Source: a virus. From it: a stretch of 62,021 nucleotides of DNA. The position numbers and the translations under genes were made by a program. Of the stretch, positions 15,391 through 50,544 are shown piece by piece. Location of the stretch: positions 1 to 62,021 of the IMG/VR virus record IMGVR_UViG_3300030109_004637. One strand, 5' to 3'. Position 1 is the stretch's first letter; each line of letters begins with the position of its first letter. The notes under the pieces are model-generated. The model was not told the origin of the DNA and made no database searches. It saw only the letters and a program-made list of their open reading frames with translations.

Positions 15391-16656
15391 TTATTTATTG
15401 TTTTTAAGTTTAAATTTAAAACTAGCAGAATCATCACCCAATACTTTAACTTTTAAACCTCCAGTATCAATATCAGTATGAGATGATCTAGAGTCCATGT
15501 TTATGTTTTTAGATTTAGAAACACTATCCTTGATAGCATCAGCTTTACCTTGCTCATAAAAATGTTTAGCTATAGCATCAGAGTTCATTGCTGTAAATAA
15601 AGATTTATGATAACCCTTAGCATCTGACATTTCATTATTTTCATTTAGAAACTTTCTAATAAAATTATTAATGTCGCTTTGAGTATTTTTTACTTTATCA
15701 GCTTCTTTAACATTAAATCTATATCTTTTATCTCCAACATTATATTCAAAACCTTTGAACGTGTTAGAAAAAACTTCATTAGTTTTTTTATCAAATAAAG
15801 ATTTTTGTTTTTCTGCTAATTTTTGAGACTTTTCAGTCTCTTTGTTATAACGATTAAAAAAATCAATAGCTTTTTGTTGCTCAGGTGCTAACTTAGAACC
15901 CATCTTGATTTCTTCATAGTATCTAGACTTTTGCCCGTCTAGATGGCTTCTAGCATTGGCAACTTGCTCTTTAAATGCTAGTTTTTTTCTTTTAATATCT
16001 CTTTCATCATCAACATCTTCGTCATAAAGAAAATTATCTTCAATTAGAAAATTTATTTCATCGCTTGATAAATGAGGTTTTGTTTGTTTATAGTAATCTA
16101 ATAATAATGAATTATCATCAATCTTACTGTAATCTTGATTTAGTCTAACATAATCTTCTAGACTTCCTCCAGTTTCTTCCATAAATTCAACTACCTTTTG
16201 TATGTTTTCAGGTAATTTAACTCCAGTTTCTTTTTGTTCTTCTACAGCTTCTTTAACTTCTTCAGTTAACTCTTCTGTTTTTTCTTGAACTTGTTTTTCT
16301 TCCTCGTCTTTTATTTCTTCAAGTACAGGTTGTTCTTCTACCTTTTCTTCTTCTTTTTGTTCGGTAAGTTTTTCATTTGTTTCTTGCTTGTTTTCTTCAA
16401 GAACCTCTTTGCTAGCTTCGGGTTCGTCGCGAACAGAAACCTCATCTGTGCTTTGCTCTTCAACGGCATCTTCTTCTTTTTTTACTGGTGGTTTTGATAA
16501 GTCAATTTTTATAACATTATCATCTGATTGTTTTTTTAATGAAGGTCTACCCCTCTTTTTTTTAACTTGTACTTTTTCTTCAACAGGTTTTTCCTGTGTA
16601 GTAGTAGTAGACTCGTTTTTATCCACCACTACTTCTTCTATTGTTTTTTCTTCCAT
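15391..16656 (-). CDS. Capsid scaffolding protein with AT-hook-like motif
   Basis: A 421-residue, very Glu/Lys/Val-rich protein placed immediately before the major capsid gene. Residues about 1-150 are low-complexity acidic and probably disordered; residues about 150-400 are predicted helical and coiled. This is the typical make-up of a head scaffold, with a basic C-terminal end (SFKFKLKNNK) that could bind capsid subunits. Residues 33-42 (KKRGRPSLKK) match an AT-hook minor-groove binding motif, which is unusual for a scaffold. The leader block at its ATG is shared with the 277-residue gene. Confidence 0.65.
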   Translation of the reverse strand: MEEKTIEEVVVDKNESTTTTQEKPVEEKVQVKKKRGRPSLKKQSDDNVIKIDLSKPPVKKEEDAVEEQSTDEVSVRDEPEASKEVLEENKQETNEKLTEQKEEEKVEEQPVLEEIKDEEEKQVQEKTEELTEEVKEAVEEQKETGVKLPENIQKVVEFMEETGGSLEDYVRLNQDYSKIDDNSLLLDYYKQTKPHLSSDEINFLIEDNFLYDEDVDDERDIKRKKLAFKEQVANARSHLDGQKSRYYEEIKMGSKLAPEQQKAIDFFNRYNKETEKSQKLAEKQKSLFDKKTNEVFSNTFKGFEYNVGDKRYRFNVKEADKVKNTQSDINNFIRKFLNENNEMSDAKGYHKSLFTAMNSDAIAKHFYEQGKADAIKDSVSKSKNINMDSRSSHTDIDTGGLKVKVLGDDSASFKFKLKNNK

Positions 16657-27418: not shown

Positions 27419-27676
27419 TTATTCGACAAGAACTACGTCTTGTGCTCTTATAATTTTATAAAGGGTGTCTTCATAGCTAATACCATGTCCTGCATGCTTG
27501 TCATAGTATACTATGTCTTTATCATTGACACCCTCGACCTTACTGCCGCAGCTGATAACCTTAGCTCTAATGTAACGATTATCCAGGTCTGTCTTCTCTG
27601 TGAAAATAAGTCCAGCAATCTTTTTTTGCTCTTCTTTTATATCACTTACTATTAAATAGTAATTAATTGCTTTCAT
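27419..27676 (-). CDS. groS: Co-chaperonin GroES
   Basis: An 85-residue GroES-type lid protein: NYYLIVSDIKEEQKKIAGLIF (first strand and start of the mobile-loop region), YIRAKVISCGSKVEGVNDKDIVYYDKHAG and a closing YKIIRAQDVVLVE that matches the final GroES strand. It is a little shorter than the usual 95-97 residues, mostly in the roof loop. It overlaps the end of groL by 14 bases, so the pair is expressed as groL-groS, the reverse of the usual bacterial order. The gene is richer in G+C than its surroundings. Confidence 0.8.
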   Translation of the reverse strand: MKAINYYLIVSDIKEEQKKIAGLIFTEKTDLDNRYIRAKVISCGSKVEGVNDKDIVYYDKHAGHGISYEDTLYKIIRAQDVVLVE

Positions 27677-29225
27677 TAGTCCTCATATTAGATATAACAC
27701 AATCTGCAGATATAATAGTTGATACTACACTTACTGCATTTTTTAAAGCTGTCTTTGTAACTAATACAGGATCTATAATCCCACTTTTTACCATATTAAC
27801 GTGTTCACCAGATACAACATTAAAGCCCCAACCTTTTTTTAAAGGTTCAACTGAGTCTTCTATACCTGCATTTTCTAGTATAGTGTTATAAGGTGAGCGT
27901 GTTGCTTGTAATAATATATTTTCACAATCGTTAGAGGGTAGTATTGCTTGTGATGCATTTAATAAAGCTATGCCACCACCAGATATAATACCTTCTTTTA
28001 ATGCTGCTTTTACAGCATGTATTGCATCTTCAACGCGATCTTTCTTTTCTTTTAACTCAACTTTTGAGTCCGCACCTACTCTTACAATACCGACAGAACC
28101 AGATAGCATGCTAAGTCTATCTTGTAATTTTCTTTTTATAAATTCGTTTTTTTCTTTTTCTATTTTCTTTTCAACTTCAGATATTCTTTCACTAATACTA
28201 CTGTTAAGTTCTTTTATAGTAAGTACAGTGTTTTTATTATCTGTAACTGATTTTAATACTTCACCTAAACAATCAGGTTGTATTAGATCTAAATCATCAC
28301 CAAGCTCTTCACTAATAACTTTAGCACCAGTTAGTATAGCTAGATCTTCAATAGCATCTTGTTTGGTAGGTCCAAATCCTGGTAAATCAATAATATTAAC
28401 ACTAATATTACCTTTAACCTTATTCATCATTAAAGCTGATTGAACTTGTTGGGCTACTGAAGCTACTATTAATAAAGATTTTTTATTCTTTATAACGTGT
28501 TCTAATATAGACTGTATTTTTCTAATACTTGGTATTTCTGATGATACTATTAATACTAACGGGTTTTCTAATGTTGCAGTCTCTCTATCTTTATCTGTAA
28601 CAAAATGAGGTGATTTTAAACCGCAGTCTATTTGTACACCATCAACAGTTTCTACATAAGTTTCGTTTGTTTCTGATTCTTCCATTAACACAACACCGTT
28701 TTTACCTACAACGTTGTATGCTTCGGCTATAGTGCTACCTAGTTCTTCATCGTTGTTACATGATATAGTAGCAACACTATCTAACATTTTACCAGAAACA
28801 TCTACACTATTTTTATCTAAAAATTTATTTACTTTGTTTAAAGCAGAGTTTATACCTGATTTAATTTGTCTAGTAGTATATTGTAAATTTGCATTAACTT
28901 CATTTAATAGAGATTCGGCAAGTACGATAGCAGTTGTAGTACCGTCACCTGCCTCCCTCACTGTATTCCTAGAAGCTTCTTTAATAAGAGTAGCTCCTAT
29001 GTTCTCCACTGGATCAAACAAGACAACCGATTCTGCTACGGTTACTCCGTCTTTTGTGATCACTGGTTTACCTCTAGCATCTTCGTAAATAACACATTTA
29101 CCTGATGCACCTAGAGTAGATTTAACAGCGCCTGCTAGTTTTTCTACTCCAGCTGATATTCTATTCTTAGCTGAGTCACCAAAGTTTAAATCTTTGACAA
29201 TCTCGCTAGGCTGATTGTATTCCAT
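27663..29225 (-). CDS. groL: Chaperonin GroEL (Cpn60)
   Basis: A 520-residue chaperonin subunit. ATP-site motifs are intact: KDGVTVAE (Asp59) and AGDGTTTAIVLAE (93-104) in the N-terminal equatorial part, and RVEDAIHAVKAALKEGIISGGG in the C-terminal part. The apical domain lies between about 180 and 370. It lacks the Gly/Met C-terminal tail of host GroEL. Phage GroEL proteins usually fold capsid or tail subunits. Part of the N-terminal coding region (28.9-29.1 kb) has raised G+C. Confidence 0.9.
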   Translation of the reverse strand: MEYNQPSEIVKDLNFGDSAKNRISAGVEKLAGAVKSTLGASGKCVIYEDARGKPVITKDGVTVAESVVLFDPVENIGATLIKEASRNTVREAGDGTTTAIVLAESLLNEVNANLQYTTRQIKSGINSALNKVNKFLDKNSVDVSGKMLDSVATISCNNDEELGSTIAEAYNVVGKNGVVLMEESETNETYVETVDGVQIDCGLKSPHFVTDKDRETATLENPLVLIVSSEIPSIRKIQSILEHVIKNKKSLLIVASVAQQVQSALMMNKVKGNISVNIIDLPGFGPTKQDAIEDLAILTGAKVISEELGDDLDLIQPDCLGEVLKSVTDNKNTVLTIKELNSSISERISEVEKKIEKEKNEFIKRKLQDRLSMLSGSVGIVRVGADSKVELKEKKDRVEDAIHAVKAALKEGIISGGGIALLNASQAILPSNDCENILLQATRSPYNTILENAGIEDSVEPLKKGWGFNVVSGEHVNMVKSGIIDPVLVTKTALKNAVSVVSTIISADCVISNMRTNESN

Positions 29226-29252: not shown

Positions 29253-29426
29253 TTACTTCTTTTTCTTCTTCATCATCATAGCGCCATTTTTCTTCTTCAT
29301 CATAGCACCATTCTTTTTCTTCATCATTGGACCATTTTTCTTCTTCATCATAGGTCCGTTCTTCTTTTTCATCATGGGTCCATCATCTTTTTTTTTCATC
29401 ATTGGACCTTTCTTTTTTTTCATCAT
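29253..29426 (-). CDS. MMKKKNGP tandem-repeat microprotein
   Basis: A 57-residue protein made almost only of Met, Lys, Asn, Gly and Pro. It consists of six units of the form MMKKKxGP/A (variants MMKKKKGP, MMKKKDDGP, MMKKKNGP twice, MMKKKNGA twice) and a closing MMMKKKKK. The DNA repeat of about 24 bases is diverged at third positions while the amino acids are kept, which argues for a translated, selected protein. Net charge is very high. Function unknown: a nucleic-acid condensing peptide, a Met-rich metal binder or a membrane-active peptide are all possible. Confidence 0.65.
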   Translation of the reverse strand: MMKKKKGPMMKKKDDGPMMKKKNGPMMKKKNGPMMKKKNGAMMKKKNGAMMMKKKKK

Positions 29427-29446: not shown

Positions 29447-29707
29447 TTAAAATGTTTTAACTACTTTGGGGCCTTTTGTTGCCTCAAGTTTCTTATTGTA
29501 ATGTTCGATACTACCGTCAATAGCAGCTTCCGCGCCATCTAAGGTCTCTCTTCTTGTAACGTCGTACCAAACATCTTCATTGTCGATGTCTCGGTGCTCG
29601 GTTTGATAAAATCCATTAGGTAATTGTGTAATCCTCCAGTTGCTTTTTTTAGCAACATGCTTGAGTTTATTAATTACTTCTGGATTTATTTGTGTTTGGT
29701 TGTTCAT
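29447..29707 (-). CDS. Small hypothetical protein
   Basis: An 86-residue protein from ATG 29707 (MNNQTQINPEV); an ATG at 29737 and a TTG at 29767 are also in frame. The body NWRITQLPNGFYQTEHRDIDNEDVWYDVTRRETLDGAEAAIDGSIEHYNKKLEA looks like a small alpha/beta domain that may bind a partner. The family is not recognised. It precedes the repeat microprotein by 20 bases. Confidence 0.5.
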   Translation of the reverse strand: MNNQTQINPEVINKLKHVAKKSNWRITQLPNGFYQTEHRDIDNEDVWYDVTRRETLDGAEAAIDGSIEHYNKKLEATKGPKVVKTF

Positions 29708-29758
29708 TGTGTTTGAACGGTAATAAAAATAAGTCATGGTTTTTAAATTTACATGGTT

Positions 29759-29783
29759 AAACCGCAATATCGCGGGTTTTTTT
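29759..29783. other. GC-rich hairpin with T-run on the plus strand
   Basis: AAACC-GC paired with GC-GGGTTT (one bulge) followed on the plus strand by seven T residues. In the plus direction it has terminator form although the nearby genes run on the minus strand; it might block antisense transcription or act as an RNA structure before the 86-residue gene. Confidence 0.35.
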
Positions 29784-29912: not shown

Positions 29913-30134
29913 TTAACCCTCTTTTCTAGTTCCTTGGCCATCATTACCTCTGTTTTTAGCTGGAGTTTCCCATCTTTTGTCTTTATGATCCCAGTCCATA
30001 CCTTTTTTGCTAGGATTTGCTCTATGTCTACGCTGGTTTTCAGCTTTTTTTGCTCTTCTTGATGGTGTTTTAGCAAATGCTAAGTCTCTAGCAGCCTTAT
30101 CTCTTCTAGCTTGTGGTGATAATTTTTGTGCCAT
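29913..30134 (-). CDS. Small basic phage protein
   Basis: A 73-residue Arg/Lys-rich protein (LSPQARRDKAARDLAFAKTPSRRAKKAENQRRHR) with a closing MDWDHKDKRW and NRGNDGQGTRKEG. Proteins with this plan recur in cyanophages and other marine phages, where DxDH and NRGN are conserved; some are loosely annotated as HNH-like but a full HNH motif is not present. It is the gene closest to the divergent region and so likely the first minus-strand gene there. Confidence 0.6.
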   Translation of the reverse strand: MAQKLSPQARRDKAARDLAFAKTPSRRAKKAENQRRHRANPSKKGMDWDHKDKRWETPAKNRGNDGQGTRKEG

Positions 30135-48704: not shown

Positions 48705-48803
48705 TTACTTTTTTACAGGCACGCAGTTAGGTACTCTTCTATTACCTTTTTTCTTAAATCCTTTCTGTGTGTAACCTCTCCAACAATTTTTTTTCTTTTT
48801 CAT
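48705..48803 (-). CDS. CW-GY microprotein
   Basis: A 32-residue basic protein MKKKKNCWRGYTQKGFKKKG... with RVPNCVPVKK at the end. The CWxGYxxxGxKxxxxRVPNCV pattern is one I recall from many marine phages, function unknown. Its start overlaps the stop of the gene before it (ATGA). Confidence 0.65.
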   Translation of the reverse strand: MKKKKNCWRGYTQKGFKKKGNRRVPNCVPVKK

Positions 48804-49045
48804 GCTCCGCATTTTTTACCTGTAGCTACGTTAATCCAGTTTTCTTTACCAAACCAGTCTCTTAAAGTTGCACCTTTTTTGCGTGCACCTTTTACGTTAC
48901 TGCTACTACTTCTTCTGTACTTACCTTTAGATGCTGCTGCTCTTTTAGCATTTACAACTTTTTTTCTTTCAGCAGGTGACATACTAGCAACTTTTCTTGC
49001 TGGTAAACAAACTTTTGTAGTACCTCCACCTTTAATTTTACTCAT
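48800..49045 (-). CDS. Basic protein with WFGKENW-CG tail
   Basis: An 81-residue Lys/Arg/Ala/Ser-rich protein: VCLPARKVASMSPAERKKVVNAKRAAASKGKYRRSSSS, then LRDWFGKENWINVATGKKCGA. The tail (W-x5-W-x-x-V/A-x-T/G-K-x-C-G) resembles short domains found in marine phages and large DNA viruses, thought to be virion or nucleoid proteins. ATGA-type coupling on both sides. Confidence 0.6.
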   Translation of the reverse strand: MSKIKGGGTTKVCLPARKVASMSPAERKKVVNAKRAAASKGKYRRSSSSNVKGARKKGATLRDWFGKENWINVATGKKCGA

Positions 49046-50275: not shown

Positions 50276-50416
50276 TTATTTCTTTTTACCTACACCCCAA
50301 TTTTTAGCTCCTCTTCTTCTACATTGAACTAATTGACCAGATGCATAAGCACTTGGCCAAACTTTTACAGCTCGCTTTACTTTATGATAACAAGCATCTT
50401 TTTTGCCTTTACTCAT
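50276..50416 (-). CDS. CYHKVK-WPSAYASG microprotein
   Basis: A 46-residue protein with the motif CYHKVKRAVKVWPSAYASGQLVQC and a K-NWG tail. This CxxKVK...VWPSAYASGxLVxCR pattern recurs across marine phages and large DNA viruses; role unknown, two conserved cysteines. ATGA coupling with the gene before it. Confidence 0.65.
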   Translation of the reverse strand: MSKGKKDACYHKVKRAVKVWPSAYASGQLVQCRRRGAKNWGVGKKK

Positions 50417-50544
50417 TTTTTCTTTTTTAATTTAAACTTGGGTCCACCTTTTCTAAGTGCTTTAAAATCAGCTCCTGTAATAGCATCAAATGGCGCAGCC
50501 ATTTTTGCTATTTTCATTTGATTTTTAGTTAATTTCTTTTTCAT
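50413..50544 (-). CDS. Basic island microprotein
   Basis: A 43-residue protein (MKKKLTKNQMKIAKMAAPFDAITGADFKALRKGGPKFKLKKKK). The PxDxITGADFKxLRK segment is recurrent in marine phages. Stop overlaps the next ATG. Function unknown. Confidence 0.6.
   Translation of the reverse strand: MKKKLTKNQMKIAKMAAPFDAITGADFKALRKGGPKFKLKKKK

What the first reader, a model, noticed from the sequence alone, without database searches (positions are those of the whole stretch)
29253..29426. Protein built of MMKKKNGP repeats
Six tandem MMKKKxGP/A units plus MMMKKKKK make a 57-residue protein of five main amino acids. The nucleotide units differ at many third positions while the residues are kept, which points to selection on the peptide and not to recent slippage. 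I know of no characterised family with this sequence. Paired methionines could bind Cu(I) and the lysines could bind DNA or membrane.
Basis: partly seen in the sequence, partly recalled or inferred. Interest (0 to 1): 0.7.

Follow-up and report, generated by a model that had tools for sequence, protein, structure and literature searches.

The report
Lysine-methionine repeat protein in marine flavophages
A marine virus of (probably) flavobacteria carries a real, selected gene for a tiny, highly charged protein made of one repeated phrase (MMKKKNGP); it is most likely a loose DNA-coating protein in the style of bacterial histone-H1-like proteins, and it sits among related viral proteins that carry an undescribed short tag of similar make-up.

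Summary
Confirmed. Window 29253-29426(-) encodes a 57-aa protein of six MMKKKx(x)G(P/A) units plus MMMKKKKK (net charge +22). It lies between a conserved 106-aa gene and phage groEL/groES, on their strand. The slot is filled in every sampled member of one groEL clade (single origin, support 99/100), by 35-57-residue proteins rich in K, M and G/S-P. Two relatives keep the MMKKKNG(P/A) repeat itself; the others keep the composition, not the sequence. Between orthologues pS is about 0.75 and pN about 0.02, so the peptide is under selection. Lys codons are shifted to AAG (54% against 16%), which breaks up poly(A). No Pfam, PHROGs, NCBIfam or PDB match. The protein is predicted unstructured. Best reading: a late, disordered, polycationic nucleic-acid-binding protein, like H1-like proteins (Hc2, AlgP) in manner but not a member. 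Cu(I) binding is unsupported: Met is exchanged for Leu, Thr or His in relatives. Wider lead: within 6 kb of groEL, 90 of 1327 distinct proteins of these phages carry an N-terminal [AP]FK[ML][KR]-type tag (expected about 2); none of 504 around portal do. The window phage has no tagged protein. Function remains inferred.

The parts
29253..29426 (-). gene of the 57-aa MMKKKx(x)G(P/A) repeat protein (six units plus MMMKKKKK)
   Evidence: orthologues in L001/L002 and slot homologues in L006, L009, L010/L011
29427..29460 (-). conserved A/T-rich leader TTAAAACATTTTAAATATTTAAACAATTATAGTT before the start codon; no Shine-Dalgarno-like motif seen
   Evidence: alignment with L001, L010 and in part L009, L006
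29447..29767 (-). conserved neighbour gene directly upstream (106 aa from TTG; 96 aa from ATG at 29737), predicted alpha-beta3-alpha fold, weak YegP/UPF0339 resemblance
   Evidence: present before groEL in 59 distinct versions among groEL loci; 36 invariant columns in 32 rows; AF2 pLDDT 82; Foldseek best E 0.07, VIA Z 5.1
27663..29225 (-). groEL, 27 bp downstream of the repeat gene
   Evidence: Pfam PF00118 E 1.5e-52, PHROG 5725 E 4e-136
27419..27676 (-). groES
   Evidence: PF00166 E 6e-6, PHROG 3188
29913..30134 (-). 73-aa small basic protein (pI 11.2), same operon direction; some relatives of it carry an N-terminal FKLK-type tag
   Evidence: phrog_6437 E 0.004; pI; tagged version in L023, near-tags in L042, L043, L075
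26232..26549 (-). 105-aa peptidase-like protein, untagged here; homologues in L009, L010, L012 start with MAFKMKG or MGFKMKG
   Evidence: phrog_16532 E 4e-11 and phrog_87 metallo-protease E 0.007

Best explanation
A small, intrinsically disordered, strongly cationic phage protein encoded in the presumed late operon next to groEL/ES. It most likely works as a non-sequence-specific nucleic-acid binder in the manner of histone-H1-like/protamine-like proteins: clusters of three lysines, spaced by G-P or G-A turns and flanked by flexible Met, neutralise and bridge phage DNA (or RNA) during replication, packaging or in the virion. Shown: real conserved gene, selection on the peptide, composition-conserving turnover of units, clade-wide presence in one slot, codons that avoid poly(A). 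Inferred: disorder (from sequence and a low-confidence model), late expression (from operon direction and neighbours), nucleic-acid binding (from charge and analogy), virion location (from looser analogues lying in virion gene clusters).
For: Net +22 in 57 aa, no aromatics, 2 acidic residues. AF2 pLDDT 62, pTM 0.13, no secondary structure. pS 0.75-0.80 against pN 0.016-0.023 between window and L001, p about 1e-10. Slot filled in all five sampled lineages of one groEL clade, one origin, support 99/100, 0 of 500 shuffles. Charge kept (+15 to +22) while sequence and unit number change, 35-57 aa, like Hc2, whose lysine-rich units are duplicated and deleted in frame (PMC2848022). Related small proteins in the same phage family read MKKAPAKMAKKSPAKK and KKKSPAK, which is H1-like. 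Lysine-rich low-complexity regions are enriched in DNA-binding proteins (PMC6821194). Looser MKKK repeats in other marine phages lie between terminase and portal or among capsid-side genes, and a cultured pelagiphage has a run of small basic proteins upstream of its capsid gene.
Against: No binding, expression or virion proteomics data exist. Met makes up 26% of residues, more than a plain H1-like protein needs. No sequence-level homology to any DNA-binding protein can be shown, because the sequence is low-complexity. The gene lies beside groEL, not beside replication or packaging genes. Elemovirus elemoF, Cellulophaga phi38:1 and phi46:3 and Tenacibaculum Gundel_1, in the stretches read, show no such gene, so it is dispensable for phages of the wider group.
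Confidence: 0.45

Rival explanations
1. Free-standing multivalent docking motif. The phages of this family put a short N-terminal tag ([AP]FK[ML][KR]-G/S-x-P) and internal SP[MAF]/KMK motifs on accessory proteins encoded around groEL. The repeat protein is an array of a related motif that binds the same partner (prohead, chaperonin or nucleic acid) and organises or competes with tagged cargo.
For: 90 of 1327 distinct proteins in groEL loci are N-terminally tagged against 1.8 expected, 0 of 504 in portal loci. Tagged proteins are enriched in SP[MAF] and KMK motifs. The tag is optional on the same protein family. In L009 one 386-aa protein has MPFKMMSPF at its start and about eight MKKKSP-like units at its end.
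Against: The window genome has no tagged protein although it keeps the repeat gene; the repeat lacks Phe, the residue by which the tag is defined; no partner is known.
Confidence: 0.25
2. Membrane-active or anti-host cationic peptide (lysis helper, or inhibitor of a host process).
For: Cationic-hydrophobic composition (M 26%, K 42%).
Against: G-P or G-A every 8 residues and no predicted helix; it lies on the strand of the structural genes, next to groEL; no signal sequence seen.
Confidence: 0.08
3. Cu(I)-binding Met-motif peptide.
For: Met pairs in every unit.
Against: Met is exchanged for Leu or Thr (L009, L010: TLM, MLM) and the pair is replaced by MGH in L006; crowding by Lys should disfavour a cation (inference).
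Confidence: 0.03
4. Leader peptide/attenuator of groEL: a Lys/Met-rich ORF followed by a terminator hairpin.
For: Hairpins follow the ORF in L001 (-13.8 kcal/mol, z -5.7) and L010 (-9.7, z -2.7).
Against: No hairpin in the window; in L001 another gene, not groEL, follows the hairpin; the peptide is conserved while its Lys codons vary freely between AAA and AAG.
Confidence: 0.04
5. Not a gene: slippage-grown AT-rich repeat, or the antisense frame is the coding one.
For: AT-rich genome (30% GC); antisense frame open in window and L001.
Against: Units are not recent copies (pS about 1 between units); sense frame and start kept in five lineages, antisense broken in L006 and L009; AAG preference.
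Confidence: 0.03

Closest known systems
Chlamydial histone H1-like protein Hc2 (PMC2848022) and relatives such as BpH1
   Same: lysine-rich low-complexity protein of short tandem units that are duplicated and deleted in frame; even spread of positive charge
   Different: Hc2 units are K/R-A-V-T-P pentamers in a 165-237-aa protein with conserved ends; here 8-residue MMKKKNG(P/A) units, Met instead of Ala as filler, 35-57 aa, a phage gene; no homology can be shown
AlgP (histone H1-like protein of Pseudomonas; PMC9239181, title and abstract only) and SPKK-motif sperm histones (PMC9903204, abstract only)
   Same: KSPAKK/KAPAK-type motifs occur in sister small proteins of this phage family (L018, L055, L111)
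   Different: the window protein itself has GP/GA in place of SP and no KAPAKK
MKKKGYAxGG / MMKKKGMAAGG repeat proteins of other marine phages (L094, L124, L117, L130 and others; unnamed)
   Same: M-KKK units with a short G/A spacer, stand-alone or as a C-tail, in virion gene clusters
   Different: spacer GYAxGG or GMAAGG, no Pro; unrelated phages; kinship not demonstrable
Small basic marine-phage families DUF6321 and DUF5872
   Same: small lysine-rich proteins in or near virion gene clusters of a cultured pelagiphage (HTVC027P) and of marine contigs
   Different: defined sequence domains; the window protein matches neither

Membership tests
Hc2 / bacterial histone H1-like proteins | lysine-rich tandem short repeats, strongly basic | tested here: met
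   six units, pI 10.85, net +22
Hc2 / bacterial histone H1-like proteins | Ala/Pro/Val/Thr-type pentamer units (K/R-A-x) | tested here: not met
   units are MMKKKx(x)G(P/A), with Met and Gly as fillers
Hc2 / bacterial histone H1-like proteins | sequence match to a family model | tested here: not met
   no Pfam, PHROGs or NCBIfam hit
Hc2 / bacterial histone H1-like proteins | DNA/RNA binding | not testable with these tools
   needs gel shift or condensation assay
Marine-phage MKKKGYAxGG repeat proteins | MKKK units with GYAxGG or GMAAGG spacer | tested here: not met
   spacer here is N-G-P/A
N-terminally tagged proteins of this phage family | [AP]FK[ML][KRN] within the first 16 residues | tested here: not met
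   no Phe in the protein; no tagged protein in the window
DUF6321 / DUF5872 | match to Pfam model | tested here: not met
   one search gives no family for the 57-aa protein
Cu(I) Met-motif proteins | conserved Met ligands | tested here: not met
   Met exchanged for Leu, Thr or MGH in slot homologues

The most novel reading that the evidence does not exclude
Marine flavophages of this family use a short terminal peptide code (N-terminal [AP]FK[ML][KR]-G/S-x-P plus internal SP[MAF]/KMK/MKKKSP motifs) that sends dozens of unrelated accessory proteins to one destination, such as the capsid interior or the phage chaperonin. The MMKKKNGP protein is a free-standing multivalent member of this code.
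Probability: 0.15. Interest if true: 0.75.

Novelty: new variant of a known kind. Interest (0 to 1): 0.45.

Why it matters
It shows a phage gene whose amino-acid make-up and motif are under strong selection although the sequence turns over between sister phages, a good natural test of what a minimal disordered polycation does for a virus. It also points to an undescribed short N-terminal tag on about 7% of the proteins around groEL in an abundant marine phage family (at least 600 stretches with a portal relative). If the tag is an encapsidation or chaperonin-docking signal, it would say which accessory proteins travel in the virion.

Tried and rejected
Pfam, PHROGs, NCBIfam and PDB sequence searches of the protein: nothing. 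Repeat pattern in 11.3 million genome contigs: 0. Strict two-unit pattern in 2.9 million viral contigs: only the two close relatives. Relaxed [SG]P pattern: 25 stretches, which include this clade, proteasome-like proteins with an unrelated AMKKK tail, and L215 and L156. tblastn of the 106-aa neighbour and of the L009 386-aa protein in named phages: none. Searches of named phages with three repeat proteins of other marine phages gave single weak hits or none. The terminator scan did not list the L001 hairpin, but folding shows it. Conserved nested ORF MKLKKITLTTAEW... inside the scaffold-like gene: may be only a shadow of that gene's codons. dN/dS as sole proof of the sense frame: rejected, because antisense third positions coincide. 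No paper in the library holds the tag strings. Structure search of the 106-aa neighbour: only weak YegP-like matches, not used as evidence.

Full report
What is there. The window is one whole virus record of 62,021 bases, 30% GC. Its terminase and portal are related to those of cultured phages of Flavobacterium (Elemovirus), Cellulophaga, Tenacibaculum and Maribacter, so the host is probably a marine flavobacterium (inference). The reported ORF is exactly where stated: 29253-29426, minus strand, 57 aa, six MMKKKx(x)G(P/A) units and a final MMMKKKKK. It has 24 Lys, 15 Met, pI 10.85, net +22. It lies 20 bp after a conserved 106-aa gene and 27 bp before groEL, with groES next, all on the same strand.

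Is it selected? Among the five exact 8-codon units the pairwise differences fall at codon position 3 (38) and position 1 (6), none at position 2. Against the 49-aa orthologue in L001 there are 14-15 synonymous and 2-3 non-synonymous changes on about 19 and 128 sites: pS 0.75-0.80, pN 0.016-0.023, p about 1e-10. Neighbouring genes of the same pair give pS 0.21-0.22 and pN 0.035-0.044. So the peptide is constrained, and the units are old rather than freshly slipped. The high pS in the gene itself is unexplained; reshuffling of units (comparison of non-orthologous copies) is the likely cause, since most outer units differ little and the middle ones much.

A trap. The antisense frame (FFFFIIGP...) is open in the window and in L001, and its third positions coincide with those of the sense frame, so these ratios cannot tell the strands apart. 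Three facts favour the sense frame: it lies in operon direction, its upstream region is conserved up to the start codon, and the antisense frame has stops in L006 and L009. A fourth sign is codon choice: Lys is AAG in 54% of cases against 16% in the genome and in its Lys-Lys contexts (p 1.6e-5), with the same shift in L001, L006 and L010 but not clearly in L009. This breaks up poly(A), as expected if slippage of polymerase or ribosome is costly.

Relatives. A groEL search gave 80 viral loci. The same slot holds MMKKKKGPMMKKKNDGP(MMKKKNGA)3MMMKKKKK in L001/L002, MPGRMMKKGPNMGHKKGPK... in L006, MPGMKKKKSPVMMMKKKKSP... in L009, and MMKKKKSPAMMMKKKSPMTMMKKKSP... in L010/L011. In a groEL tree of 80 rows these five lineages form one clade (99/100; one change; 0 of 500 shuffles as low). 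L006 and L007 (same contig as L001) are sisters, yet their slot proteins differ strongly, so sequence turns over while charge, Met content and G/S-P spacing stay. Outside the clade the slot is empty or holds other genes. A scan of 2.9 million viral contigs with a two-unit pattern finds only L001/L002, and a genome-contig scan finds none.

Wider context. Other members of the phage family carry small proteins such as MKKAPAKMAKKSPAKK... and MKKKSAMTMKKKSPAK.... Unrelated marine phages carry MKKKGYAxGG or MMKKKGMAAGG repeats as stand-alone proteins or C-tails, between terminase and portal or among capsid-side genes; kinship with the window protein cannot be shown, and the gene roles there are read from sequence by eye, not from a family search. 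In the groEL neighbourhoods, 90 of 1327 distinct proteins begin with an FK[MLI][KRN] tag within 16 residues (expected 1.8 by shuffling), against 0 of 504 around portal. The consensus is M-[A]-F-K-[M/L]-[K/R]-G/S..., often followed by S-P. It is an optional add-on: the 105-116-aa peptidase-like family and the 73-aa basic family occur with and without it. Tagged proteins are enriched in SP[MAF] and KMK motifs. L009 joins both features in one 386-aa protein, tag-like start (MPFKMMSPF) and MKKKSP-like tail. The window has no tagged protein, so the link between tag and repeat is suggestive only. The count is of ORFs called by a simple longest-first rule, related copies count more than once, and only 6 kb around groEL was sampled.

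How it most likely works. The protein is predicted to be unstructured (AF2 pLDDT 62, pTM 0.13), with no homologue in PDB or family libraries. Charge, spacing and in-frame unit turnover match the way Hc2-type proteins are built and evolve (PMC2848022), and lysine-rich low-complexity regions are typical of nucleic-acid binders (PMC6821194). I therefore commit to a late polycationic nucleic-acid binder at 0.45, with a docking-motif array as the main rival at 0.25. It may work like an H1-like protein; it is not filed as one, since unit type and model matches fail. Cu(I) binding is disfavoured, because Met is exchanged for Leu, Thr or MGH.

Verdict. It is a new variant of a known kind of low-complexity basic protein. 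The tag pattern around it is the more surprising lead and deserves its own study.

Noticed in passing
groEL loci L006-L085 (for example L009:9942-10292, L016:2478-3248, L050, L040): N-terminal [AP]FK[ML][KR]-G/S-x-P tag on 90 of 1327 distinct proteins, optional on the same families, absent around portal; not found in the held literature.
   Followed up: partly
window 16338-16469 (-) inside 15391-16656 (-): A 43-aa basic ORF (MPLKSKAQMRFLFATNPKLAKRF...) nested in another frame of the scaffold-like gene between portal and capsid; related nested ORFs at a similar offset in L218, L251, L252, L258, L266, L271, L286 and L291, some ending in KKSPxxFKMK.
   Followed up: partly
L215:4543-4674 (+): A 43-aa MPGMHKKKSPMMKKKSPMKKKSP... 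ORF nested in the scaffold-like gene of a related phage, 175 nt from that gene's start, much as the window's nested ORF (187 nt).
   Followed up: partly
portal loci L226-L296: A conserved nested frame MKLKKITLTTAEWLQSLKMPSPHKNKKKYNRK... about 140 nt into the scaffold-like gene in most loci; could be a second gene or a shadow of the main frame.
   Followed up: no
L009:8779-9939, L093, L094, L101, L103, L016, L054: EF-hand-like PDLTGDGKVTQKDILKGRGV or DIDGDGNTTESMK motif in or beside lysine/methionine repeat proteins of different marine phages.
   Followed up: partly
L001:6181-6546 (+): An extra 121-aa very basic protein (MPVKKQKKVKIIKNK...) between the repeat gene and groEL in L001/L002, absent from the window; a terminator-like hairpin stands before it.
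   Followed up: no
window 29447-29767 (-): The conserved 106-aa companion gene has a confident alpha-beta3-alpha model with weak YegP/UPF0339 resemblance.
   Followed up: partly
window 48705-48812 (-) and 50413-50544 (-): Other tiny basic ORFs (MRSMKKKKNCWRGYTQKGFKKKGNRRVPNCVPVKK; MKKKLTKNQMKIAKMAAPFDAITGADFKALRKGGPKFKLKKKK); the first resembles L032:2089-2208. No Pfam match.
   Followed up: no
L089, L118, L120, L122 and others: Proteasome-like phage proteins (MTAIVGIQGKGWAVIAADSMTT...) with a MPAMKKKxxSPAMKKKAYAMAEK C-tail.
   Followed up: no
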